Source: Strigamia acuminata (Eukaryota > Arthropoda > Chilopoda > Geophilomorpha > Linotaeniidae). Taken from it: a stretch of DNA of 60,000 bases. Below are positions 11,238-59,340 of the stretch, piece by piece; the stretch's first letter is position 1; every line of letters starts with the position of its first letter. The notes below the pieces were generated by a model, which searched no databases, was not told the DNA's origin, and saw only the letters and a program-made list of their open reading frames with translations. Where the stretch lies: NCBI GenBank assembly GCA_949358305.1, contig OX442315.1, forward strand, positions 7,530,427-7,590,426, given 5' to 3'. The translations under genes and the position numbers were made by a program.

Positions 11238-11260
11238 CTTCTCGACCGTCTGCGCCATTC

Positions 11261-14200
11261 ATGAAGAAGAAGGGGTTCAACAAAGGGTTCGATAAAACGC
11301 CACCAGTCAAAGAAATGGGTAGTGACATAGCTAACGCCCAGATCCAAGACAGGGCCAACAACGCTTTGCAGGTAATTACTGCAAACGCTGAGGTTGAAGT
11401 GGAAGAACCGAACCTACTGCTTGAAGAATTACCTCAAGTAGTCAACGAAGACACAGAAGAATTTCGTGTTTTCATGTGCAACGTGGCGGTCGAATACACC
11501 AGCCGCCTATGTATGCTGCCCATGACAATAGAACGCGAAAAAATTATGGGACTATTAGACTCGGGAGCAGATCGCTCGTTCGTTTCCGAAGACATAGTAG
11601 CATCATTGGGTCTCACCGATAAGATAAAAGGCGTTAATAAAAATGTACGTCTAAAAACCGCCAACGGAATGGCGCGTCCAAAAGGAGTAATATTATTGAC
11701 CATGGAGTGGCTCGGAGGGGTAGAACAGCACCCTTTCCTGGTCCTGCCCACGTGCGACAGAATTTTTCTGTTGGGCTTAGACCTCATGGCGTCAATGGAA
11801 ATACAACCAAATCCAATAACGAAATCTTGGAATTATATCAGAAATGATAGAGAAAGACCCGCAATTGTCGTGCCACCAGTTCTTATAAAAGAAGCGGCCG
11901 ACAAGACACAGTGGGAGAAAGGCCTAAAAAAATTCGTTCAAGATTACGATTTTAAAGCATTCGTAACAGAATTGCAACGGGACAATGTAGTAGAAACGCT
12001 TGTCGCCGACGCCGCTTTAGAATTAAATAAAGCGGCAGCCCTACGAAGGGTCCTACTTAAATACGAGGGGATCCTGTCGAAAAAACCGGGCCGAACAAAT
12101 AGGGCTATTCACGAAATTAAATTGACGGATAATAAACCTATACGAGTTGCGTATAAGGGAATGAACCCGCAAAAACGTGAAATAGTGCAAAAAATGTGCC
12201 AAGAAATGCTAGACAGCGGCATTGTCTCCGAGGCCCAAGGAGAATACGCGACGCGAGTTGTGCTCGTGATGCGCCCGGGCTCGGATCCGCGTCTATGCAT
12301 TGATTACCGCCCATTAAACGCGGTGACGGAGATAGATCCCATACAGATGCCGTCGATCGAATCCATTTTGAGAGAGCTTAGCCCCTTTTCTTGGGTTACG
12401 ACGATGGATCTGTCGAAGGGATACTGGCAAGTAGAAATGAGGCCAGAGGATAAACTAAAGACAGCATTTTACTCGCCAATTGGACGGTTGATGTTCAACG
12501 TCATGCCGTTTGGTTTAGTGAATGCTCCCAGTACCTTTCAGAGGCTAATCGAGAGCGTATTGGGTGATATATTGCATCAGTTTGTGTGGGCATACTTAGA
12601 TGACATTGTCATCGCCTCAAAAACATTTGAAGAGCACATTGAGCATATCGACCAAGTGCTCACCCGGCTGGCGAAAGCTGGGTTGCACGTACATCCAGGG
12701 AAAAGCAAGTTTTGCCGTAAAGAATTAGCTTTCCTGGGTTATCGCATTGGTGTCAACGAGCTAGCAATCGGCCCCGAGAAAATTGATGCGATTCATCGTT
12801 TTCCACCGCCCGAAGACGTTAAGGGGGTTCAGAGGTTTATGGGGATGATAAACTTCTTCGGCAGACTCTTACCGGGTCTTGCTGAGGTCGCAGCTCCAAT
12901 AACCGACCTCCTGAAAACTGAAATGGAGTTCGAGTGGACAGACGATTGTAACATCGCATTTAATGCGATAAAGAGGATGTTGACTGAAGTTGGAGTCATG
13001 CCTCTACCCGACTTGAACCGGCCGTTCATATTACACACGGACGCCAGCAGAGTTGGGTTGGGAGCAGCATTGCTCCAAACACACGTGCGCGACGGAGTCG
13101 AACAAGACCTGCCGTGCATGTTTATAAGTCGCAAACTCCAAGGCGCTGAAAAAAATTACAACGCCACAGTGTTTGGCAGTTGTGTGGGCTATAAGGAAAT
13201 TCAGAGATTATCTCGAATATACCAAATTTGTAGTCCACACAGATCATCAAGCGTTACAATGGCTGATGAAATTAAAGGAGCCAGCCGGTCGACTAGCCAG
13301 ATGGCAGTTAGAACTGATGGCATGCGACTTGACCATTCAATACAAGCCCGGCAAATATAACGTCGTGGCTGATGCTCTGTCACGGGCACCGGTGTCAGAT
13401 CCTATCGACGCTGACGATGATGGCGAGGATGATTCCCGCATCATTTACTGCCCAACGAGTTGTCATCGTTGGGATTTAAGGAAAATGAATGAAATTCCTA
13501 CCGCGTCTCCAGCAGATGTAAAATTCTGTGGATTCTGGACGCGGTTATACCAACCAGCTGCTGACAATTACCCAAATGCAAAGAAGGAATTTAAGCTAGA
13601 GCGGAGAATAAATGACCCGCTTCTAAGCGCCTTCCACGCTCATGTCGGCAAGCAAATGCGAAGCAATCCCCCGACAAGGGAGGAAATAATTGTGCAACAA
13701 AAATTAGACAAGAAATGTCAGGATAGAGCTAAGTTCGTACTGACAGGAAAATATCCGCCCAATCTGACCAGAAGGCAGAAGCGCCGCTATGCACACGAAT
13801 CCATAGATTACCTACTGGATGACGGCCTTTTGGTGAAACATCACCCAAATCACCAAGATGACTTGAGTGAATCAGACACCGCAGTAAAGGTAGTAATACC
13901 TGCTTCCTTAATTGGTCGTATATTGTGGTCGTTACACGGGCACCCGCTTGCAAGTCATGCGGGAGTAAGCAGAACACTCTATCGTGCTACACAGCTTTTT
14001 CACTGGACAGGGATGAAAAAAGATATTGCTCTTTTTGTCCACCAATGTCAGCGATGTCAAGCGTGCAAGCCGAGGAGTAAATCACCATTCGAAACTATTT
14101 TCTTAGGGCCTTACGCGCCTTTTGATTGTTTAAGTGTCGATGTGATGGGCCCAAAACCCATTACGGGAAATAAAAACGCGTACATTATTGTTATAATGGA

Positions 14201-15323
14201 CGTAGCAACTCGTTGGCCCGAGTTGTACGCCGTCGCTAGACCTTCAGCAGAAAAAATCGTTGAATGTATCTACGACGTAGCGTTACGTTACGGATTTCCA
14301 CGTAAAATAATATCCGATAACGGACCCCAATTTATCTCGAAAATTTGGGGTAAATTTTGTGAAAAGTTCGGTATTGTAGCGTCACACACCTCGACCTATA
14401 ATCCCAGAACGAATCCCGTTGAGCGACTCAACAGGGACATTAAATATGCATTGAGCATATTCACTGACATCCACAATCGTTGGGATGAGTACTTGAGGGA
14501 GATCGCGTTCAGCATACGAACGACGGTCTCAAGGACGAGAGATTTTTCTCCGGCCTACCTCAATTTCGCCCGAGAGCTATGAGTGCCTTGGGACCCACGA
14601 GTAGCAGAGTCGGTAAATGTGGTGGACCCCGAAAAACCACATGAGTACGTGTATAAATTGGAACAAACAATTTCGAGCACGTACAAGCATATGATGGCGC
14701 ACATTTTTAACATGCGCGACCGCATTTTACAAGATAAAAGCGGTAGAAAATTTGTGAATTTTGAGATCAATGATTTAGTGTGGAAGGACACACACATCCT
14801 CTCAAATGCAGCGAGAGGAATCACCGCCAGCTTGGCCAACAAAAGAGACGGTCCGTATGTGATCATCGACAAGCATGGCGGTAACGCATATAAATTGCGT
14901 AAGCTCGAGGATAATACCGAGCATAAATCGATCCAAGTACGAGAGTTAACTCCGTACATTCCGGAATTCCCGCAAGAAATGTGGGCCAAGGGCCAAGTCA
15001 AGTCCAAAACTGACGGCCAAATCGTCGATATGTTCGCTGGCGAGTCGGAAAAAGCACCGCCAAGCGACAACGAGGAGTATTTCGACGCCCCTTCACCTCC
15101 GGTAAACGAGATCGTTGAATCCGTTCCGGATCCAATTTTGGTCGGGGGGGAAACAGGAGAAACTCCTGAAACAAACACAAAAAACACGGATAAAAAAGAA
15201 AACAATAATGAGGAGGTACAGACACTAGAAACAAAAAACGTCGTACCTGTCTCGACTCATCACCTGCGGCCCCGTAGAAGTAATCCGTTTATAAAAGACG
15301 GAAAGGTCGTAGGAAAGGAGTAG
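11261..15323 (+). pseudogene. Gyp-1 pol: protease, reverse transcriptase, RNase H, integrase (one frameshift, one stop)
   Basis: Pol lies in the -1 frame relative to the end of gag and is already open upstream of the gag stop. Order: aspartic protease LLDSGADRSF near 11555; RT with YLDD at 12594-12605; RNase H with HTDASRVG near 13038; integrase zinc domain (HxxxxH...CQRCQAC) at about 13940-14065; D,D,E core at about 14135-14420; and a GPY/F-type module (KRDGPYVI) near 14848. Near 13165 about 8 bases are missing compared with Gyp-2, shifting the frame. At 14580-14582 a TGA stands where Gyp-2 has Arg. The end (NPFIKDGK) matches Gyp-2. No chromodomain is seen. Confidence 0.9.
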
Positions 15324-15555
15324 AAAAACGTTACGAGTCGATGGCGACGCTGAAAACAAAAAATTGATCGATCGACAGCGCTAGCCATCAAAATCCGAGA
15401 CTCTGAAAAATTTCGCTAAGTCCAACAAGCGATTTCGGTCGAATTCACGTCACAAGATGGCGTGGAAACGCGGGACCCGTAGCAAAATTATCGGCACGGG
15501 TCGGATACCGCGTGCAAAAGACCCCGTAGCAGCGATCGCGCACGGGTGTAGAAAC
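15324..15555 (+). other. Gyp-1 spacer between pol and third gene (left of Cop-1)
   Basis: This is non-coding internal sequence. It resumes at 22679 after Cop-1. The piece GTAGCGTAACATGCGCACGG just after the insertion is conserved in the equivalent spacer of Gyp-2 (inverted, around 41775-41800). Confidence 0.6.
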
Positions 15556-16101
15556 TGTTGATGTGTAAAACATCATTTGATCTGATATGGATCCTATTCT
15601 ATTAATTTATTAATATGTTTCTAGTTATATATTCTCGTATTATTGTTTTACAATGTTTATAACGATTAGTTATATCGTTATTCCATATTTCCTTTAATCC
15701 GTGCTTGAATGCACGATGCTATGTTCTTTTAGTTGTGTTTGACATTAAGCACGTTGCAGTTGCTATCTGTTTGTGCTTATAGTGTATTATTCCGCCACTA
15801 GTTGGCGTTACTGTTGTATTCTGTTATCCAAGATGGCGACGGCCATGACTTTCAGCCAGCCTCTTGTTTTTCATGCAATTATGGACTCCTACGTGAGTAT
15901 TTTCGTTGATATTAAATTTATTTTATGCTTTTAAGCATTCAGTGTTCTTTGTTACGGCATATAAGTGCTTTGCACGGCCGTTTTTGGTCTGAATTATCGG
16001 TCTGGTTAATTCCGATAATCGTAGCCGCCATTTGCGATTTGACCACTCGTTTTTCCTTAGTTTGCACGATAATTCGTGCCAGTTTTTCGTCCTCTGCTAC
16101 A
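15556..16101 (+). repeat. Cop-1 5' LTR
   Basis: The LTR runs from TGTTGATGTGTAAAACATC to GTCCTCTGCTACA. It contains CCAAGATGGC at 15828-15837, the reverse complement of the 10-mer in the Gypsy LTRs. Its last ten bases before the terminal A (CCTCTGCTAC) are the inverted complement of the primer site that follows. Confidence 0.95.
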
Positions 16102-16103
16102 GT

Positions 16104-16115
16104 TGGTAGCAGAGG
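16104..16115 (+). other. Cop-1 primer-binding site, initiator tRNA-Met type
   Basis: TGGTAGCAGAGG is the usual Copia primer site, complementary to the 3' part of initiator tRNA-Met. With the LTR end it forms a 10-bp hairpin (16091-16100 with 16106-16115). Confidence 0.85.
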
Positions 16116-16139
16116 ATGGTTGGCTTTCCAACACAGCAC

Positions 16140-16560
16140 GCGATTTTCCACTAATTTATCGCTAAATTTCGCGAATTTCGCGATTTTCGGCGATAATTTG
16201 TATTTTTCAGGTCTCGACGATTTCCTACGACGATTCTACGACGTGACAACGTTTTTCCTGCTACCAGCTACGTTCTCAAACGTGGGACAACGTTTTGACA
16301 CGGGAAAGTCGTCGTTTTTCGCCGATAATCGGAAATTTGCGCGGGATTCGCGAAATTTCCGGGTTTTCTTTTGTTTATTTGTAGATTTCGACGATTTAAA
16401 GTTTACGACGACGGTTTTGAACGTGCAGCAACGTTTTCACACACAAAGTGTGATTATTTTCGTCGTTAACCGGGAAATTTACGCGGGTTTCGCGAATTTT
16501 CCGAATTTATTTTGTCTTTTTCAGATTTTCAACGATTCGACAACGTCCAAGCGACGTTAT
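16140..16560 (+). repeat. Cop-1 leader: three degenerate tandem units
   Basis: Within the roughly 990-base untranslated leader, a unit recurs three times. It is built from CGATAAT-CGGAAATTT-type and CGCGAATTT-type words, a T-rich tract ending in AG (at 16210, 16384 and 16524), then TTTCGACGATT-like and ACAACGTTTT-like words. Spacing is about 174 and 140 bases. Each T-tract plus AG resembles a splice acceptor. Long apparent open frames across this region (for example 15925-17235) are a by-product of its TCG-rich wording. Confidence 0.55.
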
Positions 16561-17089
16561 CAACCAGAAACGGGTCCAGCCCGCTGTATTGCACCCCGGT
16601 GTGCGTACAGTACCGACGATTTTGCAATTCGACGATTTTTGATCAATTTCCGCGTTTTCTACGCGTGGTTGCGTGTTGCGACGAGCACCGCAACAGATTC
16701 ATCAATTTCGCCTTCCTATTGCTTTTCAGATTTCGTTATTATTATTGTTAGATTTAAGTTATTTTGGAGTGGGTCCCTTAGTATCGATTTCACCTTTAGT
16801 CCAGTCGGGCTCGTGAAATTTGTATTCTGTGTTGAGGCTATCCCTGCGCCACCTAACGTTTCCGTGGCCCTAGGCGGTTTGCAAAGGGCGTTAGGGGGAT
16901 ACTCAGCACAGGTTATCAAGGCAATTGTAGCATTGCCTCCCCGTCGTGGTTTCCGCTTTGACAGTGCTTCGAGTGATTTGTGCGACGATACGTGTGTGCT
17001 TCTCCACAGTGCTCCGTTCTTCGAAATACGACCGCCCGTACCACTTCTAAAGCCACGATATTTTTCACGTTTGTGTTTGGACACCGATC

Positions 17090-20000
17090 ATGCAGAAGTC
17101 TTCCGAACTTTCGTTGACGCGTGTACCCATACTTGCCGTAGGAAACTACGAGATGTGGGCGCGCAGTATGAAGATGCTGTTGAAGTCCGAATCTTTGTGG
17201 CATCATGTCACAGAAGAGGACGAGGAGGAAATTAAGAAAACTGCCGATCCGAAGGAATTAAAGAAACATAAACGCCGCAAAGATAAGGCGCTAGGATTGA
17301 TTTATGGTTTTGTCTCCGAACCCAAGAAATCAGCGCTGGACAACTGCAATACGCCTAAAGAGGCGTGGGATACGCTGGCCAAAATCTACGCGCCCAGCTC
17401 CCGTGCCAGAAAAGCAGCTTTACGGCGTGAATTCCTCGGACTGCGATTGGAAAAGGGGGAAGAGATGGCTGATTTTCTGGGACGTGTGGATTACCACGTC
17501 CAGAAATTGAAAGACATTGGCGAGAAAACATCAGAAGATCACCATGCGTATCAGTATCTGGATTTGCTACCCCCCGAGTACTCGCAGGTCTCCTTCTCGA
17601 TCTACCATTGGGAAGACGACAAGTTTAAACCCCAAACAGTGTCCGAACAACTTCTCTCGGAGTACATGAGACAAGGGTCATTTAGGTCTCGTGATCAAAC
17701 TTCGTCATCTTCACAGGCTTACGCGACGGATCAAACTCGCTCTCGCTCCCGGAATCGACCGCTTTCCTCGATTAAATGTTTCAACTGCGACCAAATGGGA
17801 CATTACGCGAATAAGTGCCCTGAACTTCGAAGAAGTAGGAATTCCAATCCTTCTGTGTCACTCCAACGCCCTTCGAGAAGTAAAAGTCGCAAACGGGGAA
17901 AGAACAGTTCGAATAAATCCAATGATGGTCGTCCTAAGGGCAGTTCCCAAGTTAGGTGGGACGCTAACTTCTTTGTAAACGCACCGCCACAAATCACCGA
18001 GATGCCCGCTGCTCATTTTATGCAGAGCCACGAATGGATCGTCGATTGTGGCGCGACAGATCACATTTCCCACGTCGCGTCATGGTTTACGGACTTCGTG
18101 AAAGTTGTACCATTCGATGTTGAACTCGGCCAAGGCACCTCGCAAGTGACTGGGAAAGGAACGGTCCAAATCCAAACGAACATTGATGGATGCCTTTGTG
18201 TAGTGAATCTCCGAGATGTATTCTACGCGCCGAACTTCGAAGCTAATCTAATTTCGGTGTCGAAAATCGATAAAAATGAATTCCATATCCATGTTTACAA
18301 AGGTGAAGTAAACGTTTTCAAGTCTGACATCCAACATTCTGTTCTACGTGCCAAAGAGAAGGGTGGACTTTACTACGTGGATGGCTTATCTCCACCGGTG
18401 ACTTCTGCGACAAATGTGATTTCGACTTCGCAATCTTTACCTCCAGTACAGACATTAGTGACCGTTGAGGAAGATTTTGTAAAGGTTCCCAAACCTAGAA
18501 AGAAGCCGAAGGAACGTGCATTGACAGATTTTCGATTAGAATTTCCTCCCTTAACACAGGAAACGCAATCTCTTCCTGTTCCGAAATCTCCTCCCGTTCC
18601 TACACCTGTCCCTAACTCACCTACACAAGCCAATCCTACCGCTCCTTCCCCTTCACAAACCTTTGCCGAAGTATTGCAAACAATCCCGTCCTTGAAAACA
18701 CCTCCTCCTAAAGTCAATCAGAAGAAGGTCGCAGCTCCAACTGCTAAAAAGGACGCGACCGGCATATGGCATAGTCGACTTGGCCATCTACATACCAACG
18801 CGATGAAACTTCTAGCAGCCAACGACCAGGTTTATGGCATCGAACCGGCTGAAGTCGCGAAGGAATTGACCTGCAATCACTGCAGGGTGGCCAAATCGAC
18901 CAGGGCATCACACAAACCCGACGAACACCCGATGACGTCAAAAGCGTTGGACCTTCTCCACATGGATCTCTGGGGACCACATCCAGTTAACTCTTTTGGC
19001 GGTGCTCGTTACATTTTTACCATAATCGACGACGCAACGCGTTACACGTGGATGTTCCCGCTGGCTCAAAAATCTCAGACTTTCGAATGCTTTAAGGATT
19101 TCGTTTCTCGCATCGAACGCGTCGCAGACACGCGGGTTAAGGCCATTCGAACTGATCAAGGCGGGGAGTTTATGTCGAACGAGTTTATGGATTACCTACG
19201 TAAAAGTGGAATTCAGGGACAACGCACGAATCCAGCGAGCCCCCAGACGAACGGCACGGCCGAACGCATTAACAGGACGATGGCCGACTTCATGCGGGCG
19301 ACGTTGGATGAGACGAAACTTCCCGAAGAACTATGGGCCGAAATTGCCGTTTCATTTTCCTACATCAAGAACCGCTGCCCACATTCCCGTATTAAGAATG
19401 AAGTGCCGTATATTTTATGGCGGCAACGTGCTCTCTCTGTTCGGCATCTCCGTAGGCTCGGATCGAAATGTTGGGTCCATTACACCGCTCCGGGACGCAA
19501 CAAGTTGGCGCCTCGCGCCTGGGAAGGATTTTTAGTCGGCTACGCGGTGGGAACTCGAGGATATCGTGTTTGGAACCCCGTCGACAACAAAGTCGTGGAG
19601 TCGATCCACGTGAAGATTGATGAACGACAGTCCTATCGTCGCTCTCAGCGCCCTTCCCAACCGACATTCGAAGAGTCTTTTCAACCCGGACCTCGTGCTT
19701 CTACTACGCCACCGTCTCATGTCAAATTCGACGACACGATCCAATATTCGACATGGTCGACAGGTCCTGACTCAGACGATCCAGACTCGTCAGATTATGA
19801 CTCCGACGATTCCGCGCCTCCGCGCGCTCCACCACCGGGTATCCAATCGCCTCCACCTGGTCGACAATCTCCGGTATTGGGTGCGCAAGCGATGCCACCA
19901 ATCGAAGTAATGGCCGATTTAATATTACCGACATTGCGTCCAGATACTTCGACAGGCACTACACCGACTGGCACTCCGACCAATACGCCACCGGGATCTC

Positions 20001-21880
20001 CAACAAGACTCGTGACCGCCAGGAGGGGCTCCGCACCGACTCGCACTGCAGAGCAGCCCATTCTTGTTGAAATGGGTGCCACATCTTACAAATGGCGCTC
20101 GGTGGGAGGAAACAACCCGTGCAGCAATTGGCGAAGAGAGGAACATTTACGCAAAGATCAAGTTCCGGGCCAAGTCAGGATCGATGTTTATTATTTCCCG
20201 AAACCCGGTGTTCGTTTACGCTCCAAACCCGATATCCAAAAGTATTGCGATAAAGAGGGAATTCTTTACGACAATGATCTATTCTACTTCGGAAACATCG
20301 AGCATCAATTACCCGTCATGCCGGCACTTCGTCATCGAGTCCATTTTTGCCGTCGAGAACCAGGATCGTGCGCAGAGGCTGTCAAGTTTCCGGATGCCCC
20401 TAAGTGGCAGGAAGCTATCGACGAAGAATTGGGAACCTTCAAGAAACGCGAGGTTTACCAAGAAGTTCCGAAGCCTCCGAACACGACAATCCTCGGCTGC
20501 AAATGGTTGTTCAAATTAAAAACCGACACCTCCGGACAAATTACTCGTTACCGCGCCAGATTGGTCGCACAAGGTTTCAGACAGACTCTCGGCGTGGACT
20601 ACGATGAGGTCTTCAGCCCGGTTGTAAACTTCGTTCTCATCCGATTCTTCTTCTGTCTACTCGTCATTCTACAAGGGTGGAAAGACGCGCACCTGGATGT
20701 AAAGTGCGCGTATCTTTACGGAGAATTGGAGCATCGAGTTTACATGCGAATTCCAGCCGGCGCCCATTGCTCGAACCCCGACAACGTCTGGCTTCTCATT
20801 AAATCACTGTACGGTCTCCACCAATCTGGCCGTCAGTGGTATGAGAAGTTAGATGAAACACTACGAGGACTCGGATTTCGAAAACTTCCAGCGTGTAACT
20901 GCGTTTATATATTCGGGACATCGGCCGTGATGCTTGTCTACGTGGATGACATCGTTCTTTTCTACTCGACGGACAGCATCTTGGATCGAATTATTCGGCT
21001 GATATCATCGAAATTCGAAATCGTTAACCTCGGGCCCATCTCCAGATTGCTTGGTGTCGAATTCATAAGAACCGCGGGGAGGGTGTTCATCATTCAGCGG
21101 TCTTATATCGACAAAATCATCAAGAAGTTCGAGGTTTCTGCCGACAGGATGATCAAAGTCCCCGTTACACCTGGAACGACATTGAAGAAAGGATCCATCG
21201 AAAATCTCTCCGACTTCCCATATCGGTCATTAATCGGATCACTTTTATTCCTCGCCTCTCGAACTCGTCCGGACATTCTCTATTCCGTCATCGCGTTATC
21301 CCAGTATAACAATTGTTATAACAAGACACATATTCGCGCACTTCTTCAAGTTCTCCGCTATGTCGCGAATACGCCTGATCTTGCGATTGAATTGTCCGGA
21401 TGCACGACAAGCCAATTATGGGCATTTACCGACGCTTCTTGGGCCTCCGACACTGAAACATCTCTTAGCTTCGGGGGATTCATCACGTACATCGGAAACG
21501 TCCCCATCGGTTGGTCGTGTAAGAAACAGTCTTCGGTTGCGTGCTCGACGATGGAAGCGGAGTTCATCGCCCTCGTCGAGTGCGTAAAGGAACTCTACTG
21601 GCTTGATCACGTCTTTTCGCAACTCCCGCATTTGAACCGCATTTCCCGTCCCATCGTCTATTCGGATGCGCTGGCGTCCATCCAGTTCACCTCCAACGAC
21701 GTGGAAAACGCGAAGACCAAACACATTCGTGTGAAGTATCACTGGTTGCGGGAGTGGTATGTGGCAAAAGTATTCAAATTACGGAAAATCCCGGGTGATG
21801 ATAACGTAGCGGACATTTTCACCAAATGGCTACCATCTGATCGACTTCGGAAGCTCACTTCGGGAATCTTCTGCCAGTAA
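17090..21880 (+). CDS. Cop-1 Gag-Pol polyprotein, 1596 residues
   Basis: This is a single intact frame. Gag region: UBN2-like capsid (about residues 10-200) and CCHC knuckle CFNCDQMGHYANKC near 230-243. Protease: VDCGATDHIS at about 317-326, with Cys where Ser/Thr is usual after the catalytic Asp. Integrase: HSRLGHLH...CNHC zinc domain near 560-600, then D at about 625, D at 688 (RTDQGGEF) and E at 724 (GTAER), with 35 residues between the last two. RT: YVDD near 1283-1286. RNase H: FTDASWASD near 1446. It catalyses particle formation, cDNA synthesis and integration. The start is the first ATG of this frame with good homology (MQKSSELSLTRVPIL). Length is typical for the superfamily. Confidence 0.95.
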   Translation: MQKSSELSLTRVPILAVGNYEMWARSMKMLLKSESLWHHVTEEDEEEIKKTADPKELKKHKRRKDKALGLIYGFVSEPKKSALDNCNTPKEAWDTLAKIYAPSSRARKAALRREFLGLRLEKGEEMADFLGRVDYHVQKLKDIGEKTSEDHHAYQYLDLLPPEYSQVSFSIYHWEDDKFKPQTVSEQLLSEYMRQGSFRSRDQTSSSSQAYATDQTRSRSRNRPLSSIKCFNCDQMGHYANKCPELRRSRNSNPSVSLQRPSRSKSRKRGKNSSNKSNDGRPKGSSQVRWDANFFVNAPPQITEMPAAHFMQSHEWIVDCGATDHISHVASWFTDFVKVVPFDVELGQGTSQVTGKGTVQIQTNIDGCLCVVNLRDVFYAPNFEANLISVSKIDKNEFHIHVYKGEVNVFKSDIQHSVLRAKEKGGLYYVDGLSPPVTSATNVISTSQSLPPVQTLVTVEEDFVKVPKPRKKPKERALTDFRLEFPPLTQETQSLPVPKSPPVPTPVPNSPTQANPTAPSPSQTFAEVLQTIPSLKTPPPKVNQKKVAAPTAKKDATGIWHSRLGHLHTNAMKLLAANDQVYGIEPAEVAKELTCNHCRVAKSTRASHKPDEHPMTSKALDLLHMDLWGPHPVNSFGGARYIFTIIDDATRYTWMFPLAQKSQTFECFKDFVSRIERVADTRVKAIRTDQGGEFMSNEFMDYLRKSGIQGQRTNPASPQTNGTAERINRTMADFMRATLDETKLPEELWAEIAVSFSYIKNRCPHSRIKNEVPYILWRQRALSVRHLRRLGSKCWVHYTAPGRNKLAPRAWEGFLVGYAVGTRGYRVWNPVDNKVVESIHVKIDERQSYRRSQRPSQPTFEESFQPGPRASTTPPSHVKFDDTIQYSTWSTGPDSDDPDSSDYDSDDSAPPRAPPPGIQSPPPGRQSPVLGAQAMPPIEVMADLILPTLRPDTSTGTTPTGTPTNTPPGSPTRLVTARRGSAPTRTAEQPILVEMGATSYKWRSVGGNNPCSNWRREEHLRKDQVPGQVRIDVYYFPKPGVRLRSKPDIQKYCDKEGILYDNDLFYFGNIEHQLPVMPALRHRVHFCRREPGSCAEAVKFPDAPKWQEAIDEELGTFKKREVYQEVPKPPNTTILGCKWLFKLKTDTSGQITRYRARLVAQGFRQTLGVDYDEVFSPVVNFVLIRFFFCLLVILQGWKDAHLDVKCAYLYGELEHRVYMRIPAGAHCSNPDNVWLLIKSLYGLHQSGRQWYEKLDETLRGLGFRKLPACNCVYIFGTSAVMLVYVDDIVLFYSTDSILDRIIRLISSKFEIVNLGPISRLLGVEFIRTAGRVFIIQRSYIDKIIKKFEVSADRMIKVPVTPGTTLKKGSIENLSDFPYRSLIGSLLFLASRTRPDILYSVIALSQYNNCYNKTHIRALLQVLRYVANTPDLAIELSGCTTSQLWAFTDASWASDTETSLSFGGFITYIGNVPIGWSCKKQSSVACSTMEAEFIALVECVKELYWLDHVFSQLPHLNRISRPIVYSDALASIQFTSNDVENAKTKHIRVKYHWLREWYVAKVFKLRKIPGDDNVADIFTKWLPSDRLRKLTSGIFCQ

Positions 21881-22127
21881 CCGACTATGACATCTTAATT
21901 TTCAAACGTTATTTTCGGACATTCCTTGTTTATTTTACCGGATTCGAGGTTTTATCGTGTAGTTAGATTGGGAATTATGAGCTTAGTTAAGTGATGTAAA
22001 CAAAAGTACCCGACACGATAATTCCGAAATATTATTATTTATTTTTCGTCAGACACCGTAAAGTCCCGTGTTCTGCTTTATTTATTCCCAGATCAATTGT
22101 AAATCCATATTAGATCATGGGGGGATT

Positions 22128-22673
22128 TGTTGATGTGTAAAACATCATTTGATCTGATATGGATCCTATTCTATTAATTTATTAATATGTTTCTAGTTAT
22201 ATATTCTCGTATTATTGTTTTACAATGTTTATATCGATTAGTTATATCGTTATTCCATATTTCCTTTAATCCGTGCTTGAATGCACGATGCTATGTTCTT
22301 TTAGTTGTGTTTGACATTAAGCACGTTGCAGTTGCTATCTGTTTGTGCTTATAGTGTATTATTCCGCCACTAGTTGGCGTTACTGTTGTATTCTGTTATC
22401 CAAGATGGCGACGGCCATGACTTTCAGCCAGCCTCTTGTTTTTCATGCAATTATGGACTCCTACGTGAGTATTTTCGTTGATATTAAATTTATTTTATGC
22501 TTTTAAGCATTCAGTGTTCTTTGTTACGGCATATAAGTGCTTTGCACGGCCGTTTTTGGTCTGAATTATCGGTCTGGTTAATTCCGATAATCGTAGCCGC
22601 CATTTGCGATTTGACCACTCGTTTTTCCTTAGTTTGCACGATAATTCGTGCCAGTTTTTCGTCCTCTGCTACA
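22128..22673 (+). repeat. Cop-1 3' LTR
   Basis: Same length as the 5' copy, with one visible base change. It is preceded by GGGGGGATT (22119-22127) as polypurine tract. GCCATCTTGG is present in inverted orientation at 22400-22409. Confidence 0.95.
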
Positions 22674-22922
22674 GAAACAAAGGAGCCCCGTAGCGTAACA
22701 TGCGCACGGGCTGCTGCGCACAAGTCTCAAACACCTGGTTCCGGAGTAAATTACCCAGAACCCACCACGATTGCCTCGTTTTCACCCGGACTTCCGCTAA
22801 ATCAGCTGATCGCCGTCCGCACGTGATCCACTTCGTGTTTAATTTAACCGAGTTTTTATCCATTTTTACGAGGAGTTTTTTATCATTTTACCGTGGTTTG
22901 ACCTGTGTGCACGATCCTCACG

Positions 22923-23024
22923 ATGGATGAGGACGAAAGAGAGGAAGAAATGCTCGAGATCGGGCAAGGAGACGGAGCTGAGGAGAATTGGGATCAGGAT
23001 ATGAATGTGGTTCCACCTAATCAG
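22923..23024 (+). CDS. Gyp-1 third gene (ORF3), exon 1
   Basis: An ATG at 22923 opens a strongly acidic 34-codon segment (MDEDEREEEMLE...) ending in Gln followed by the splice-donor match CAG|GTAGAAGT. In Gyp-2 the equivalent exon has the same acidic character, a shared AEE-(D/N)-WD core and the same phase-0 CAG|GT end. An upstream in-frame ATG at 22905 is possible, but the conserved part starts at 22923. No transcript evidence is available; the exon is inferred from the comparison of the two elements. Confidence 0.65.
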
Positions 23025-23409
23025 GTAGAAGTCGGTGTCGACGCACGAGACTTACAAGGGGAGAGCACCAATAAGCTATCACAGATTGTTGTAATATTAA
23101 ACAAGAAGGATTGTTATATCATGCTGAATGAGACCCTAAAATAATTTCATTCCATGAACAGCCAACAATGCAAACAATGAGCTGAAAGTTGGCACTATTT
23201 TGTCTGTGTATACATCAAATCTGAGCAATCAGGCCTAGTGTATGAATACTGTAAACAACAGTTGCTAGGTAAAAAATAGTTCCAAGATCCAAGTTCAATT
23301 TTATCATTTGAGATTCAATGATGTCATTTCCTCTTTTGATATCACATGACATATGACATCAGAACTTTGTTCAACAACATGACTGTCTTCATGAAGACAA
23401 TAATAGTTT

Positions 23410-23480
23410 GTAGTGGTGGTTCAGTGGTTAAGGCAATGGACCAGGAATCTTTCCACACAGGTTCAAATCCTGTTGGGTGT
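23410..23480 (+). other. tRNA-Ser-like sequence in left arm of Mite-P copy 1
   Basis: It reads like a shortened tRNA-Ser. There is an A-box-like TGGTTCAGTGG, a D-arm GTGGTTAAGGC, an anticodon-loop-like CCAGGAA (Cys instead of the universal U33, apparent anticodon AGG), and a perfect T-arm with B box GGTTCAAATCC and a 5-bp stem. The variable arm is missing and the acceptor ends do not pair. It is therefore a pseudo-tRNA that may retain an RNA polymerase III promoter. Confidence 0.6.
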
Positions 23481-23654
23481 GAAAATTTTTACATTTATTT
23501 TTTGTTAAATTTTAGCAGTTATTTTAATGTTTGTAATTTTATATTTGTTAAAAAATTAAAATTAACCAAATTAAAATTTTCTGGAAACAAATATAAAATT
23601 ACAAACATTAAAATAACTGCTAAAATTTAACAAAAAATAAATGTAAATATATTC

Positions 23655-23725
23655 ACACCCAACAGGATTTGAACCTGTGTGGAAAGATTCCTGGTCCATT
23701 GCCTTAACCACTGAACCACCACTAC
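23655..23725 (-). other. tRNA-Ser-like sequence in right arm of Mite-P copy 1
   Basis: This is the mirror copy of the tRNA-like sequence in the other arm, on the opposite strand, so the two internal promoters face each other across the 36-bp centre. Confidence 0.6.
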
Positions 23726-24861
23726 AAACTATTATTGTCTTCATGAAGACAGTCATGTTGTTGAACAAAGTTCTGATGTCATATGTCATGTGATATCAAA
23801 AGAGGAAATGACATCATTGAATCTCAAATGATAAAATTGAACTTGGATCTTGGAACTATTTTTTACCTAGCAACTGTTGTTTACAGTATTCATACACTAG
23901 GCCTGATTGCTCAGATTTGATGTATACACAGACAAAATAGTGCCAACTTTCAGCTCATTGTTTGCATTGTTGGCTGTTCATGGAATGAAATTATTTTAGG
24001 GTCTCATTCAGCATGATATAACAATCCTTCTTGTTTAATATTACAACAATCTGTGATAGCTTATTGGTGCTCTCCCCTTGTTAGCTCCGTGCGGTTGAAT
24101 ATGAGAAACATTTGACTAATACTTGACATGAACGCTCTGCGTTCGAAATAGTGTATAATTATTATACTAATATCCACGATCGCGAGAGCGATTGTATTTT
24201 TTCCTATTATTTGTCCTCAAAGACGCGATCGCAGACAAACTGTCGCCTCGCTCCTTGAAGATGACTCACGACAATTGTAGACGAGACAAAAGGACTCGAG
24301 CTTTGTTTTATAATTTCCAGAAATGGAAATGATTTATTGAAATTAGTCGTTAAATGATTAACAGAGACAATGATTTCTAATTTTGATTCGCTGTTTGTTC
24401 GTGATTTTTCTCGATGTCGTTATTGATTGATTGATTTTAAATTAATACATAACTTCGGATTTGAAGTTTTTTAGTTTTGATAAATTTATTCTTTACGATT
24501 TAATTTCGACCAGAACATTTATTTATATGTTCGTTAGCGACGTTCGAGATTTTGCGAATAAATTGCGAATTTACGTAATTATTACGAATTAATAATTTTA
24601 CATGTAAAATATTAAATAATCCGAAGAGAATTTCCGGATTTCAATGCTCGATTCCGTCCCGTTGTTATTTTGGACGTGAGCCAGATGTGCCATGAAGACT
24701 CTTTCTTCCTGACAAAGGACGAATTGTCCTGAATTTCTACCGATGAACAGGAATCGGACTCGACGAGCGGCCGCACGTTTATGCGACGTTCCTCGAGCCC
24801 ACCCTTATTTATCTCCGTGTCTCTCGACATTTTATTAATTGTTTATTTTTCATCATTACAG

Positions 24862-27627
24862 ATGGAGCTCCGAAACACGTGGGGAGCGCTCAGCCCCGCA
24901 TGCATTGTGCGGGCTGGCATTTATCGAGGCGTCTTGCCCGATTTTCTCCGCCGTTGTTTTGGCGATGATGCCAATCCGTATCGCATTCGCGTATTATTTT
25001 CGCGCGCCCTCGCCAAGCGATGGGTAGGTGACTGCTCTCTCCTGGATGCATTTCCGGAGTCGGTTCGAGCTGTTGTCGCTGCAGAGTTAGCTCGCAGCGA
25101 CGACCCAAAGTCGCCAATCTTCCACTCGGCCCTGTCGAGCCAATACTCCGGCAGGCCAGTGGAGGAACATGTATTGTTCGCGTGGCAAGCGGCCGAGACC
25201 GAGGAGGCCCGCGAAGAAGTGTATCAACACTACCGCCAGCAGCTAATTGACACTGCGCCGGCGGTTGCAGAGCGTGTCTTGCAGGACGAAGGCATGAGTA
25301 CCGCAGACATACATCTGTGGTGCGAGCAGATTCGGCGAGGAGAAGTTACGCCACAGTGGCGACCGAGAATGGGGATTCTCACGTCACAAGCCGAAATGTG
25401 GCAGTTACATTACTTGGGGATTCTCGGCCCCAAGTATAATTTCCCACGGAAGCGCAAGCGCTCCAAAGGAACGGGGAACAGCGATTCGCGTTCTCCGGGC
25501 GCGTCAAAGAAACAGCGCGTCGAAAAGAGCGCCACCGAGGACGATGGAGCGGGAACGTCAGCGCAGCCACCGCGCGACTCCGCGAATTACACCAGACCAA
25601 GGGTGTTTGTCAACCGTCAGATGAAAGACGGTAAAGAGACTCGAGAAGTCTGGATTTCGGGTGACGAAGAGCGAGTCTCTCGTCCCCGTGCCGGCAGACG
25701 TCCGCTGACTCATCGCGAGCAGCGGAAACAAGACCGCAAAGAGCGGTATTTCGCCAGCTGCGAAGCGCGGGGAATTCCCCTTCCCAAACACGCTCTCAAA
25801 GCAATAGAAGCGAAGGAAGCGAGAGAAGCACGATCGAAGTCGAGTGGCAGATCTTCCGGGGAGCGTCGTGTCCTAGCGCCAGACACGCGGGACCTTCGCG
25901 AGATCATCACTCAGATGAAACGCAAGAAATTGTCGCGTTTCGACCCTGCGATGCAATTCGCCCGCAAGATGGGCATCGTCGAGGATGGTACCGTGATTCC
26001 ACACGAAGTGGCACGGTGGTTGAGCGAATACGTGAATTCGCGACCCACGGCCGTCGTTCCGCCGACGAGCACCGTTACGCCCGCTCCGGCGCCTCAAGTC
26101 ACGACGACTGAGGCGCAAGCGACGCTGCCGTTGCCGGCACAGCAGTCATTGACGCTGCCGCCGCCGACGCAGCCTCCGCCTCCGCCGCCGATGCCGAGTT
26201 CGAGCACTACGCCAAACTTGGCTGTCGACGCCCCTGCGATGTTGCCCGTGCACCAGAGTATTGCGCGGGAATGCCACGAGGCTCGGATCGGCGAATATTA
26301 CCCGAGCACGGCAAGACACGACCGCACAGCGATGTGGTATGAACAGCGTGACGAAAACGCACGGCTAGCTCGAGAAGCAGCCAATCCATCGGTCGAAGAG
26401 CTCTTAGCCTTCTCATTCGTGATGGAGGACCCGAGAGCCGCCGCCGCTGCTCTGCAGGGCGCCGACGTCACTCAGCGCCATTTCATCGAGTGGGGAATTT
26501 CGATGATGCGACATCACTCGCGTGCGTTCGCTGAAGATTCCGACCGCAGCAATCCAGTAAACCGCCGTCGTCTGCAGCTGGCCTTGACCGAAATCATGGT
26601 CCAGCTGTTAACCCCTTCGCTCTTTGGGGTCGGGCGACAGGCGATGGCCTGCTGGTCCGTCGTAGACCGAGAAGGTGTACAGATACCTCGTGCACTTATT
26701 GGGGAATGGAGCGCCATTCTCCCCAACCCGGCAATGACTCGATTCGAGCTGACCCGGGACGTGGTAAACTCCGAATGGGAGGGGTACAAGTTGCGGAGCA
26801 TGGCCTTCCGCCACGCCGTTACCACGTGGGCGCCGACACCATCGACGCAGCCGTGCGCGATGATGGTCACGAGTGAAGAGCCGATGGAGAGCGACGCCGC
26901 CTCTTCGACTGCTTCACGTGGAGCCCCAACTCCACCTCCGCCGCCGCCACCGATGCCACCAGCAGCGGCACCACAGACACCCGTCCTATCAAATGCGGCG
27001 GGTAAGCCGAGACGCCTGCTGTGTCGGACGCCGCCAACGATGTCCGCCGCTCGCCAGAGCCTGACGCCTCCCGCAGCCCAAGAAACGCGGGAAGAGACGA
27101 TCAAACAGGCGGTAGTTCCGAAGAGCGCCAAGCCAGCGAAAACGGCGAAGCCTCAGACGAACTATTATGAGAAGTTGTGCGACGAGTTTTCTCAGCTGTC
27201 AATGACGACAGCGACGCGAAAATTCATTCTCGCACAGAGGGACAAAGGGAAATCAGTTTTCGTTTGGTTGCACAACCAGGTGCGCCAGACCACCGATTTG
27301 ATCCTCCATCAGCGTTTGCTGAGGGCCCACCGTGCGCCTCGAACGGCCGCGGAGGCGAACGCGATCCGGCACACCAATTCCGGGTTTTCGGCGTTCATTC
27401 CGCGGGTTTGGCTGCATGAGAGGAGACGTGCCCCGTACGAGCCAGCCGGCGGCCACGAATTGTGCTTTATTTCCGAGCACGAGGACCCCCGCAACCAGTC
27501 TTCAGCCTTGGTTGGAGATCTGGTTTTGCCGCCCGGCGTTGTGCCGCCCGGCGCTGAGCCGCCCGTCCCTGGAGTGAGTTTCGCCCAGGCGATAGATCCA
27601 GCGTCGGGTCCCAGCAAGAAGGATTGA
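24862..27627 (+). CDS. Gyp-1 third gene (ORF3), exon 2: large non-envelope protein of unknown family
   Basis: 921 codons follow the acceptor CATTACAG. Three blocks are conserved with Gyp-2. The N block (about residues 1-190) ends in SQAEMWQLHYLGIL. The middle block (about 480-660) starts AMWYEQRDENARLAREAANP and includes a VVDREGV core. The C block (about 805-905) includes LILHQRLLRAHR and VWLHERRR. Linkers are basic or proline-rich (about 395-440 and 685-705). I see no signal peptide, transmembrane segment or furin-like site, so it is not an envelope, and no zinc knuckle or known enzyme motif. It sits between pol and the polypurine tract and ends 39 bases before the 3' LTR. The function is unknown; a nucleic-acid-binding or host-counteracting role is only a guess. 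Confidence 0.8.
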   Translation: MELRNTWGALSPACIVRAGIYRGVLPDFLRRCFGDDANPYRIRVLFSRALAKRWVGDCSLLDAFPESVRAVVAAELARSDDPKSPIFHSALSSQYSGRPVEEHVLFAWQAAETEEAREEVYQHYRQQLIDTAPAVAERVLQDEGMSTADIHLWCEQIRRGEVTPQWRPRMGILTSQAEMWQLHYLGILGPKYNFPRKRKRSKGTGNSDSRSPGASKKQRVEKSATEDDGAGTSAQPPRDSANYTRPRVFVNRQMKDGKETREVWISGDEERVSRPRAGRRPLTHREQRKQDRKERYFASCEARGIPLPKHALKAIEAKEAREARSKSSGRSSGERRVLAPDTRDLREIITQMKRKKLSRFDPAMQFARKMGIVEDGTVIPHEVARWLSEYVNSRPTAVVPPTSTVTPAPAPQVTTTEAQATLPLPAQQSLTLPPPTQPPPPPPMPSSSTTPNLAVDAPAMLPVHQSIARECHEARIGEYYPSTARHDRTAMWYEQRDENARLAREAANPSVEELLAFSFVMEDPRAAAAALQGADVTQRHFIEWGISMMRHHSRAFAEDSDRSNPVNRRRLQLALTEIMVQLLTPSLFGVGRQAMACWSVVDREGVQIPRALIGEWSAILPNPAMTRFELTRDVVNSEWEGYKLRSMAFRHAVTTWAPTPSTQPCAMMVTSEEPMESDAASSTASRGAPTPPPPPPPMPPAAAPQTPVLSNAAGKPRRLLCRTPPTMSAARQSLTPPAAQETREETIKQAVVPKSAKPAKTAKPQTNYYEKLCDEFSQLSMTTATRKFILAQRDKGKSVFVWLHNQVRQTTDLILHQRLLRAHRAPRTAAEANAIRHTNSGFSAFIPRVWLHERRRAPYEPAGGHELCFISEHEDPRNQSSALVGDLVLPPGVVPPGAEPPVPGVSFAQAIDPASGPSKKD

Positions 27628-27666: not shown

Positions 27667-28661
27667 TGTGGTGACCCGACTGGGGTGGGGCACGAAGAGT
27701 TTCTCTCGTGGCCTACATACGGGTAAAGAGGGGGAGTCGCACGCGCGCCTCCCTTCCCTCAGAGCATTGACATCCAGTCAATGGACGGGCGTCTGCCCTG
27801 GGGGAGTGGGGGAGATTCGTCTTCTCCACCATTGGGTGGCTTTAGTCACCTGTCACCCCCCGCTTTGTGCAAAGGAATTTGCTTTGCACTGAGCGGGGAG
27901 AACCAACACAAAAATCAACCAAGATACACGTAAAAGCCAAACGTCCTAAAACGATCAAGCCTAAGTACAAAGACTTCAGAAGTGACCTAGGACAAGGGAC
28001 TTCCAACGTGAGTACGATTGATTTGTGTTAACCTCCGCAGAGTAACCTGCGAAACAAGATTACCACACTATTTTAGCAAGCCAGCTAGAAATAGTAAACC
28101 TACTCCAATTTAGCGAGTTGTGCAGACAAACGGTCGCACAAGCCTAAATTGCAGTAACCACGACGAGCGTTCCCGCCGCTGTGTGTTTCGCCGGGAACCA
28201 CCAAGCGTCCGCCGCTGTGTGATCGCCGGACACCTACACAAAACCCTAAAACCTAGACAACAGCCGAAGTAAGACCTTTTAGGCATTCACTCGCGCCCGA
28301 CCAGCGTGAGCCCGAAGGACCGAACGAAAAACGTGAGACGAGGACGCCATTCATTGCCACGCCGGCCTAAGACGACACCACGTTGCCACGCGGACGCCAT
28401 CTTGGATCCACAGCGACAAAGGACGACCTCGACCAGTTTCCCGCCAACTTCACACACCTTCCCTTTTACCTTTTTATTCCCTTACATATTTTATTCCCTT
28501 TTAACTGTATATTCCCGTATAATAAATACATTTATTATATTTACCTTTTACATTGTCTTGCCGTGTTACATTATTTGGGTAACCGCTTGAGTAAAGCGGT
28601 ATTGCGAGATTAGAGAGTGACTCATACCACGTATTAGCGACAGACCGAGTTGAGCGCGACA
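27667..28661 (+). repeat. Gyp-1 3' LTR
   Basis: This is the same length (995 bp) as the 5' copy, with about seven scattered base differences seen by eye. GCCATCTTGG lies at 28396-28405. Confidence 0.93.
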
Positions 28662-35000: not shown

Positions 35001-36472
35001 TTACCCTATCTGGTCCCTCAGCGCAATGGCGGGCAACTTTCCTCCGCGGGGGCGTAGGATTGGGAGATTAACGGCTGGCGGTGGCGGAGGAAGGCCATCG
35101 GGCAGCGACGTGGTCAGGTTTGCTGGATTCTCCGATTCGTTAATAAAAAACTGCGCGTGGCCGGGAGGTCCGTCCGTGCTGTTCCTTCTTTCGTGCACCC
35201 AGATTTGGGTCGAAGCGGGGAAGCGGTTGGGACATCGGCGCATTCGCTGCGTTTCCGGCGGGGTGAGGGGCTCTCGGTGAGCCCGCTGGAGCCGCTGGTG
35301 GAGGATCGGGTCGTTGGTCAACCTTATCTCCTTCGCCATCCATTGCAGGAAGGATTCACCTTGGCGGTGGGTGGCCAGCAACGCTTGACGAGTCGCCTCC
35401 GACATCTGTAGGTTAGGATACTCCACCTCCAGTCGTAAGTAGAGCTGGGCTGGCGCGGGCGCCGGTGGAGGCAGAGGCGGCGGAGACGGTGGCAACGGAA
35501 TTTCCAGCGGTGGAGTGGTTTCCTCCAAGGACAGGGTGTCCATGCTCGTCGAAGGTGGCAAGGGCGACGGCAGTGGGGGAGTCTGGGGTCCCTTGCGTGA
35601 TCGCTTCGGGATTAACTTTGGCCGCGTACTCGCCCTTCGTTCCTTCGGGAATACAGGCTTTGGAGTCGGGATATAACTCCGGGCGGCAGGCTCGGGAGGA
35701 ACCGTCTCGGCCACCACGATGGGGCGGACGGCCTCCTCCTTAGCGGATGCCTCTTCGGCGACCTTTCGTAGCAACGTCGGGTGGACCCCTGGGTTTTTGT
35801 AGCGGAACGCCATCGAACGCATCTTCGCGAACTGGAAATTCGGGTTTTCCATGGAGCGGGCCAACTCGAACCGGAGGTCGGCCGCGGCTGGTGTAAACTC
35901 GGCCCAAAGTTGGTAGAGGGCCCTGTTCAGAAAGACGCCCTCTCTGTCGATTATGGTCCAGGCGGCCATCGACTGTCGGCCGTCCAGGAAGAGGGCGGGA
36001 GACAGGATTTCGGACATCACGCGTGTTACTTCGGCGTTTAAGCTGCTTCGGCTGAGCGGCAGGGCGCGGTTTGGATCTGCCGAAAAAGTGGCGGATAGTT
36101 TGCGCATTTGGGCTATCGCCCAATTGATGTGCTCCGTCTGAGCGGCGTCAGCCTGCGTCAAGGCCCGTTCGGCGGTAGCGGGGTGCTCACATTCAGCCTG
36201 GTGGGCCTGTAGTTCTCCCAAGGTGGGATTCGCTGCCTCTCGCCGATTTCGGGCATCCCGCTCTTTCTCCTCGTACCACATGGCGTCACAAGCCGGCCTC
36301 GGGGCCTGAGTTGGCGGAGGAACTGGCGGGGGAGCCAGTCCTGGTGGTTGGTGCGGGACGTATTCTAGGAACGCCTCGCCTGGTCGCATGTTTCCAGGGG
36401 GCGCCCATCTGGTTATGGCTGGTGGTGGGGCCTCGAGGAGAGGCGGCCAGCTTGGTTGGACCGGATGGAAGG
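35001..36472 (-). pseudogene. Gyp-2 third gene (ORF3), exon 2, C-terminal part
   Basis: After Cop-2 the frame resumes in phase (...TFHPVQPSW) and runs to the TAA at 35001-35003. It holds the conserved middle block (AMWYEEKERDARNRREAANP, then TIIDREGVFLNRALYQLW) and the C block (PILHQRLQRAHREP, IWVHERRN) of the Gyp-1 protein. Proline-rich linkers lie between them. It is separated from its first half only by Cop-2 and one TSD copy, so the gene was intact until that insertion. Confidence 0.8.
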
Positions 36473-36905
36473 TGATAAGTCCGTGGAGGCCAGGAAACAT
36501 CGGAAAGGAGTTGAAACCAGCTTAAAATGTGCGGGGAGCTCGCACTTTGCGCCCGCCATGTTTTAATCACATGAAAACATAAAAGCAACTGGGTTTGAGG
36601 CTAATTGGTCTCAAACCGTACAAAGTATAACAATAGGACAAATCAATAGCAACAAGCATTGATTTGTTCTTTACAATATAAGTAAATGTTAACCTAGGCA
36701 TAATTAACCGATAAACAACACGAAAAACAACATTTATCGCTCTTTCAAGCAGACGACACAAGAAACATAGAATATGTGCGTTAACACATAAGAGTAGCAT
36801 TAATATGCGCTACACGGGTATCCAAAGGATGCCAACGCACATATCTACCATGCCTATCCAGAAATGCATGGGGAAACGGACAAAATAATTAATCGCATAC
36901 TAATA
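36473..36905 (-). repeat. Cop-2 3' LTR
   Basis: In sense it starts TATTAGTATGCG and ends GGACTTATCA; note TA instead of the usual TG start. A G-rich tract (GAAGGGGGGATT in sense, 36906-36917) precedes it as polypurine tract. Confidence 0.9.
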
Positions 36906-36922
36906 AATCCCCCTTCGATTAA

Positions 36923-59324: not shown

Positions 59325-59340
59325 AATCGGCGCGGGGGAG

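What the first reader, a model, noticed from the sequence alone, without database searches (positions are those of the whole stretch)
22923..27627. Third, spliced, non-envelope gene in a giant Ty3/Gypsy element (Gyp-1 ORF3)
Between pol and the polypurine tract, where env would lie, Gyp-1 has a gene of about 955 codons with no signal peptide, membrane segment or cleavage site. An acidic 34-codon exon ends at CAG|GTAGAAGT and a 921-codon exon starts after TTTCATCATTACAG, both in phase 0. Seen: the frames, splice motifs and conservation with Gyp-2. Known: spliced subgenomic messages serve env in errantiviruses, and extra ORFs occur in some plant giant elements. Inferred: a new class of accessory protein, perhaps RNA binding or anti-silencing.
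Basis: partly seen in the sequence, partly recalled or inferred. Interest (0 to 1): 0.88.

Follow-up and report, generated by a model that had tools for sequence, protein, structure and literature searches.

The report
Spliced non-envelope gene in Ty3/Gypsy elements
A jumping element in an animal-like genome carries an extra, spliced, non-envelope gene that is kept intact by selection, and one copy of the element that has lost exactly the predicted intron is strong evidence that the splicing really happens.

Summary
The "giant" size is not: Gyp-1 is a 13.4 kb element holding a nested 7.1 kb Copia and a 1.05 kb foldback, the latter inside the intron. The host genome holds at least three such families (Gyp-1, -2, -3), each with a net acidic exon 1, a CAG|GTA donor, a phase-0 intron and a long exon 2 of about 920-970 codons. 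Median dN/dS is 0.14. Strongest evidence: one full-length copy lacks the 801-nt intron exactly, against 163 donor-bearing places. So the intron can be spliced from full-length RNA, yet nearly all inherited RNA is unspliced. The pol-ORF3 spacer carries one to four copies of a conserved hairpin (1080 places, control 0). No convincing protein-family match. Closest precedent: CERV of Cer1 in C. elegans, a spliced non-env protein needed for genomic RNA export (PMC10309623). A CERV/Rev-like role is my best guess, untested. New variant of a known kind.

The parts
7095..8089 (+). Gyp-1 5' LTR (995 bp, TG...CA, 4-bp target duplication GGCT)
   Evidence: 99.3% to 27667-28661; termini read
8092..8109 (+). 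Primer binding site TGGGGGCCTGTCCGGGAT
   Evidence: the complementary tRNA-like 3' end is found exactly at one genomic place and with 1 mismatch at seven; that it is tRNA-Pro is recalled
8138..11047 (+). gag frame (969 aa stop to stop)
   Evidence: Retrotrans_gag E 2e-5
11180..15323 (+). pol, broken into three frames (PR-RT-RH / RH-IN / IN C-terminus)
15477..15499 (+). Spacer hairpin 1
15524..15545 (+). Spacer hairpin 2
15556..22674 (+). Nested Copia element between pol and ORF3 (target duplication GAAAC)
   Evidence: LTRs 99.8%; Pfam RVT_2
22688..22709 (+). Spacer hairpin 3
22923..23024 (+). ORF3 exon 1, 34 acidic codons, donor CAG|GTAGAAGT
23025..24861 (+). ORF3 intron (GT-AG, phase 0)
   Evidence: exact absence of the corresponding stretch in the C4 copy
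23042..24093 (+). Palindromic foldback element inserted in the intron (TTA target duplication)
   Evidence: introns of the other copies are too short to hold it
24862..27627 (+). ORF3 exon 2, 921 codons plus stop
27667..28661 (+). Gyp-1 3' LTR
41770..41791 (-). Gyp-2 spacer hairpin 1
41728..41749 (-). Gyp-2 spacer hairpin 2 (does not fold better than shuffles on its own)
41442..41561 (-). Gyp-2 ORF3 exon 1 (40 codons, CAG|GTAACA)
40900..41441 (-). Gyp-2 ORF3 intron
39562..40899 (-). Gyp-2 ORF3 exon 2, first part
36473..39561 (-). Copia element interrupting Gyp-2 ORF3
35001..36472 (-). Gyp-2 ORF3 exon 2, second part

Best explanation
ORF3 is a working accessory gene of a Ty3/Gypsy lineage. Shown: it has two exons; one genomic copy records removal of its intron at exactly the predicted sites; nearly all inherited copies keep the intron; the protein is under purifying selection; and conserved hairpin sequences lie just upstream. 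Inferred: the message for ORF3 is the spliced form, while the RNA that is packaged and copied is the unspliced form, so the element must get intron-containing RNA past nuclear retention. I think the most likely job of ORF3 is to do that. It would be a nuclear RNA-handling protein, working like CERV of Cer1 (or Rev of lentiviruses), that marks, stabilises or exports unspliced genomic RNA. The hairpin array after pol is the likeliest cis-acting site, and the basic linker the likeliest RNA contact.
For: An intronless full-length copy on C4 is 98.2-99.4% identical to an intron-bearing copy over LTR, gag, pol, spacer, ORF3 and LTR; the one large difference is the missing 801-nt intron. It has a CTAT target duplication and two LTRs that differ by a single gap. 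163 donor places against 1 junction place. dN/dS median 0.139 over 34 copies. In Gyp-3 the first ATG of the exon 2 frame is at residue 45 of exon 2, so exon 1 is needed for an ATG start of the whole protein. Diversity is 0.003-0.09 over the hairpin block against 0.08-0.22 in the intron. The hairpin pattern occurs 1080 times in the genome against 0 for the reversed control. NLS-like KRKR and a basic 16-mer near residue 190 in Gyp-1; arginine-rich TRRNRK... stretches in Gyp-2 and Gyp-3. Precedent: CERV, spliced and non-env, is required for genomic RNA export (PMC10309623).
Against: No RNA, localisation or binding data. No sequence relation to any export factor: the only Rev family match has E 8.7 in one of six members and is not significant. 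The intron-loss copy keeps gag and pol, so how ORF3 is translated from an RNA with two upstream genes is unexplained; an internal promoter, a further splice or internal initiation would be needed. The hairpins stay in the spliced RNA too, so they cannot by themselves mark unspliced RNA, and covariation does not settle that they act as RNA. Two of six hairpins do not fold better than shuffles. Only one intron-loss event was seen, and none in Gyp-2 or Gyp-3. Structure models are poor (mean pLDDT 40.9 and 41.8).
Confidence: 0.4

Rival explanations
1. ORF3 is a silencing antagonist or other host-interaction protein (for example against the piRNA pathway), not an RNA-export factor.
For: Faster divergence than pol: about 31% (N-terminal part) and 44% (middle part) identity between Gyp-1 and Gyp-2 against 83% for RT, as expected of a protein in conflict with the host. 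Acidic exon 1 and long low-complexity linkers suit protein binding.
Against: Within the Gyp-1 family dN/dS is low (0.14), with no sign of diversifying selection at that scale. No domain of a known antagonist among the families searched.
Confidence: 0.25
2. ORF3 is a structural or particle-associated protein, for example a second capsid-like or movement factor.
For: Its position suits a late gene; the predicted secondary structure is mostly helical (low confidence); Pro-rich linkers are common in structural proteins.
Against: No similarity to the element's own gag by BLASTP worth the name (best E 0.096 over 27 residues) or by profile comparison (probability 0.2%); no CCHC motif.
Confidence: 0.2
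3. The conserved inverted repeats are DNA sites of an internal promoter or insulator that drives a separate ORF3 transcript, not an RNA signal.
For: The half-sites are nearly invariant while the centres vary, copies are spaced about 41-47 bp, and they lie some 315-405 bp from the exon 1 donor. Of four stem variants two keep an RNA pair by wobble and two break a pair, so RNA and DNA readings are not separated. An internal promoter would also solve how ORF3 is translated.
Against: Four of six examples fold better than shuffles as RNA. The intron was removed from a full-length RNA that retained gag and pol, so at least that splice was in an LTR-derived RNA.
Confidence: 0.33
4. ORF3 is an envelope-like entry protein.
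For: [quoted passage not shown] a spliced message, as for env of errantiviruses (recalled). One 19-residue window of Gyp-3 reaches 1.65, and Gyp-2 and Gyp-3 have RX[KR]R strings.
Against: Gyp-1 and Gyp-2 have no 19-residue window over 1.41, Gyp-1 has no RX[KR]R site, and no Env family matched. The Gyp-3 window lies in the conserved middle part, where Gyp-1 and Gyp-2 are less hydrophobic.
Confidence: 0.03
5. There is no functional intron: translation starts at the ATG that opens exon 2, and the C4 copy is a chance deletion.
For: Exon 2 of Gyp-1 begins with ATG; the deletion ends share CAG, a possible microhomology; only one such copy was found.
Against: The deletion falls exactly on a donor seen in 37 of 41 copies and its acceptor and keeps the frame. 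Gyp-2 and Gyp-3 lack that ATG but keep exon 1, donor and acceptor.
Confidence: 0.02

Closest known systems
CERV of the Ty3/Gypsy element Cer1 (Caenorhabditis elegans), PMC10309623
   [quoted passage not shown] non-env; made from a spliced message; no obvious homologues outside its own group; highly divergent; NLS-like motif.
   Different: CERV is 517 aa from five exons, of which exons 1-3 share the gag frame; ORF3 is about 955 aa from two exons with no gag part. CERV has a Cys-rich loop; ORF3 shows no C..C motif. Function of ORF3 untested.
Bdelloid rotifer LTR elements with non-env ORF3 (Juno, Vesta), PMC5408684
   Same: Extra, family-specific, non-env ORF3 in animal LTR retrotransposons.
   Different: Theirs include recognisable enzymes (GDSL esterase, DEDDy exonuclease); ORF3 here matches no Pfam family significantly.
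Additional ORFs of plant LTR retrotransposons (aORF-3S), PMC7264820
   Different: Plant hosts; some have transmembrane segments; no hairpin array or intronless copy in the passages that I read.
env of errantiviruses (Drosophila gypsy)
   Same: Third gene from a spliced RNA (recalled).
   Different: Env is a membrane fusogen from an RNA that loses gag-pol (recalled); here no clear membrane segment, and the demonstrated splice leaves gag-pol in place.
HIV-1 Rev / RRE
   Same: Proposed logic: a spliced accessory gene whose product acts on structured RNA to save unspliced RNA.
   Different: No homology (one of six members hits Pfam REV at E 8.7, not significant); ORF3 is far larger.

Membership tests
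Ty3/Gypsy LTR retrotransposons | Pol order PR-RT-RH-IN with Ty3/Gypsy-type domains, LTRs TG..CA, PBS, 4-6 bp target duplication | tested here: met
Envelope genes (errantivirus env or other) | Transmembrane anchor, cleavage site, Env family match | tested here: not met
   Best hydropathy window 1.41 and no RX[KR]R in Gyp-1; Gyp-3 has one window of 1.65 and Gyp-2/Gyp-3 have RX[KR]R strings; no family
Envelope genes (errantivirus env or other) | Signal peptide | not tested
   no predictor available; exon 1 is acidic and hydrophilic
CERV-like accessory proteins | Spliced message, non-env, between pol and 3' LTR | tested here: met
   from DNA only:
CERV-like accessory proteins | Sequence homology to CERV | not tested
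   CERV sequence not fetched
CERV-like accessory proteins | H, M and G domains; Cys-rich loop in M | tested here: inconclusive
   Structure models too poor; no C..C motif in exon 2 of the three families
CERV-like accessory proteins | Required for nuclear export of unspliced genomic RNA | not testable with these tools
   needs cells
Gag-derived proteins | Similarity to capsid or own gag | tested here: not met
Giant plant-type elements (e.g. Ogre, Retand) | Very long internal region of the element itself | tested here: not met
   13.4-13.5 kb without nested insertions

The most novel reading that the evidence does not exclude
A Ty3/Gypsy lineage of an animal has evolved its own two-part RNA-fate switch: a spliced accessory protein of about 955 residues, unrelated in sequence to anything found, and an array of bulged-A hairpins beside its gene. 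Together they would decide whether an element RNA is spliced into message or kept intact for packaging, a Rev/RRE-like system of independent origin, with occasional leakage recorded in the genome as intronless copies.
Probability: 0.25. Interest if true: 0.8.

Novelty: new variant of a known kind. Interest (0 to 1): 0.57.

Why it matters
How LTR retrotransposons without complex-retrovirus genes keep unspliced RNA is mostly open; Cer1 is the one worked example that my searches turned up. Here is a large, apparently recently active group in another host, with a spliced accessory gene, a candidate cis element, a natural intronless copy as internal control, and many copies for comparative work. 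That makes the question directly testable.

Tried and rejected
Pfam, NCBIfam and PHROGs searches of ORF3 gave nothing usable: best PHROG E 0.0048 for one of six members, and phrog_9723 at best E 0.029 for four of six, both of unknown function and not pursued. PDB sequence searches: 0 matches. Three searches of the 5.8-billion-protein set found nothing at the thresholds used; two of them scored only the 7992 candidates sharing most words, so relatives could have been missed. IMG/VR scans with ORF3 or RT: none. Both structure models were too poor for fold searches, so none was run. Gag origin rejected. An Ogre-like PR-RT intron in Gyp-2 was considered and rejected: the roughly 470-bp gap is flanked by a TAATG duplication, so it looks like an insertion. 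Junction searches for Gyp-2 and Gyp-3 found no intronless copy. Rfam: no match. Troyka elements were looked at (PMC12440569, abstract and passages) and set aside: they have CG..CG ends, 3-bp duplications and no envelope gene. No attempt was made to name the host species. Corrected on checking: the pair counts mixed hairpins in wrong register, so I use instead. It leaves less support for the RNA reading, and I lowered the novel case from 0.27 to 0.25 and raised the DNA-site rival from 0.30 to 0.33 for that reason. The intron missing from the C4 copy is 801 nt, not the 798 in my notes.
Full report
Observation. A 921-codon frame is far beyond chance: the longest in 500 base shuffles was 297 codons. 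Gyp-2, on the minus strand, has the same anatomy, and the similarity of its exon 2 starts within a few codons of its own CAG acceptor.

What the element is. Gyp-1 has 995-bp LTRs 99.3% alike, a GGCT target duplication, a primer binding site, gag, and a pol broken by frame changes. Its 21.6 kb include a 7.1 kb Copia between pol and ORF3 and a 1.05 kb palindromic foldback inside the intron; without them it is 13.4 kb, like the 13.5 kb relative on contig C1. Gyp-1 and Gyp-2 themselves are broken copies.

Copies in the host genome. The window lies in a 237.5 Mb assembly of 157 contigs. Searches there scored only the best candidates (49 of 2580, 87 of 2079 and 49 of 2387), so counts are lower bounds. 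Exon 2 of Gyp-1 gave 85 matches, mostly with open frames. The Gyp-2 query gave 91, including a third family, Gyp-3, at 58-59% identity. All 49 listed Gyp-3 places are given a 933-codon open frame, 48 of them without an internal stop. I fetched 40 of the best Gyp-1-type copies, so the set leans to intact ones; for Gyp-2 and Gyp-3 the exon 1 side rests on one copy each. Of 41 Gyp-1-type copies with the window's, 37 have the donor, 1 has no intron (L047), and in 3 (L009, L019, L030) no exon 1 was found within the 2.3 kb fetched. The triplet before exon 2 is CAG in 40 of 41, counting L047, where it is the end of exon 1; the exception, L019, is a match starting at residue 5. Introns of the other intron-bearing copies are 775-854 nt.

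Evidence for splicing from DNA. Copy C4:18093299-18096163(-) joins exon 1 to exon 2 at exactly the predicted sites, gatcag|ATGGAG. Over LTR, gag, pol, spacer, ORF3 and LTR it is 98.2-99.4% identical to the C1 copy; apart from gaps of a few bases, what it lacks is the 801-nt intron. It has a CTAT target duplication, and its two LTRs differ by one gap. The simplest account is reverse transcription of a spliced RNA that still held gag and pol. The junction pattern occurs once in the genome and the donor pattern 163 times, both at up to 3 mismatches and with 0 control matches. Junction patterns for Gyp-2 and Gyp-3 occur 0 times. So unspliced RNA is what is normally inherited. In Gyp-3 (L054) the exon 2 frame is closed 5 codons before the acceptor and its first ATG is at residue 45 of exon 2, while residues invariant among the six aligned proteins begin at residue 7, so exon 1 is needed for an ATG start of the whole protein.

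Selection. Among 34 of the 41 copies (six dropped for early stops, L019 dropped for its start), the median dN/dS over the 557 pairs with dS above 0.01 (of 561) is 0.139, quartiles 0.119-0.163. Choosing open frames biases this downward, but hardly from 1 to 0.14. Between families ORF3 diverges faster than pol: Gyp-1 to Gyp-2 identity is 31% (N-terminal part), 44% (middle part) and 83% for RT.

The protein. Three better conserved stretches (about residues 1-200, 480-655 and 765-900 of exon 2) are joined by basic and proline-rich linkers. It has NLS-like strings and no CCHC or C4 motif; the hydropathy maximum is 1.41 in Gyp-1, 0.92 in Gyp-2 and 1.65 in Gyp-3. No family was convincingly recognised. 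AlphaFold models are mostly below pLDDT 50 and only suggest helices.

A second conserved thing: hairpin sequences in the pol-ORF3 spacer. The pattern CCGTAGC-N4..12-GCACGG occurs five times in the window, all in the two spacers, where 0.01 is expected. CCCGTAGC-N9/10-GCACGG occurs 1080 times in the genome, with 0 for the reversed control; the first 100 places listed show runs of up to four, 41-47 bp apart. In the sequences held, 116 places lie in 41 of 44 spacers searched, 36 of them with three. Four of six examples fold better than shuffles as RNA (z -2.4 to -2.8); one Gyp-2 example and the Gyp-3 example do not. Among 14 distinct cores the four outer pairs are kept in 14, 13, 14 and 13, the two inner pairs and the bulged A never vary; two changes are wobbles and two break a pair. 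Covariation support is therefore thin, and a DNA role is open. Diversity over the hairpin block is 0.003-0.09 (lowest at the first two, 0.09 at the end of the third) against 0.08-0.22 in the intron. All 14 exon 1 donors listed on the first 31 Mb of contig C1 have hairpins 314-405 bp away.

Mechanism. I argue for a CERV/Rev-like role as the likeliest: a spliced accessory gene whose element must pass on unspliced RNA. In Cer1 the equivalent protein is needed for genomic RNA export (PMC10309623: abstract, sections 9 and 15 and passages read). Against it: the intronless RNA kept gag and pol, so ORF3 translation is unexplained; the hairpins remain after splicing; and no binding or localisation is known.

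Known or new. Extra non-env ORF3s are known in bdelloids (PMC5408684: abstract and section 3.3 read) and extra ORFs in plants (PMC7264820: passages read). Ten paper searches were allowed and all used. Apart from the papers named here, in Tried and rejected, and passages of PMC7998251, I saw only their listings, and no listing named this protein family; but most subscription journals are not held, nor, to my knowledge, Repbase entries. New here as far as searched: the protein family, the two-exon design with gag-pol left in place, the hairpin array, and the genomic intron-loss copy. I file it as a new variant of a known kind.

Noticed in passing
23042-24093 and 49644-50683: Palindromic foldback elements (99.3% alike, arms 97% complementary, ends CAAGGGGAGAG, TTA/TAA target duplications, tRNA-like stretch in the arms by eye, though ARAGORN calls no tRNA); one sits in the ORF3 intron, the other in an LTR of Gyp-2. 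PIF/Harbinger-like by target site (recalled).
   Followed up: partly
L025, L027, L029: These copies have a divergent exon 1, acceptor and start of exon 2; L025, the one aligned, is nearly identical to L045 over most of the rest, suggesting recombination between subfamilies.
   Followed up: no
45507-45040 (-): An insertion of about 470 bp flanked by a TAATG duplication splits Gyp-2 pol between protease and RT.
   Followed up: partly
52611-54452: Long inverted array of ~153-bp units rich in GGCCCTCCTGGGCC, 97% complementary arms.
   Followed up: no
54755-59937: BEL/Pao element with 98% identical LTRs (DUF1759, Peptidase_A17, integrase H2C2).
   Followed up: no
2428-3738 (-): Frame with an F-box/LRR-type match (E 4e-8); part of it (2527-2982) is repeated at 33652-34084 at 77%.
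   Followed up: no
L050 (C4 copy), reverse strand: gag (1035 codons) and pol (1383 codons) frames overlap by about 55 nt in different frames, suggesting frameshift expression of pol.
   Followed up: no
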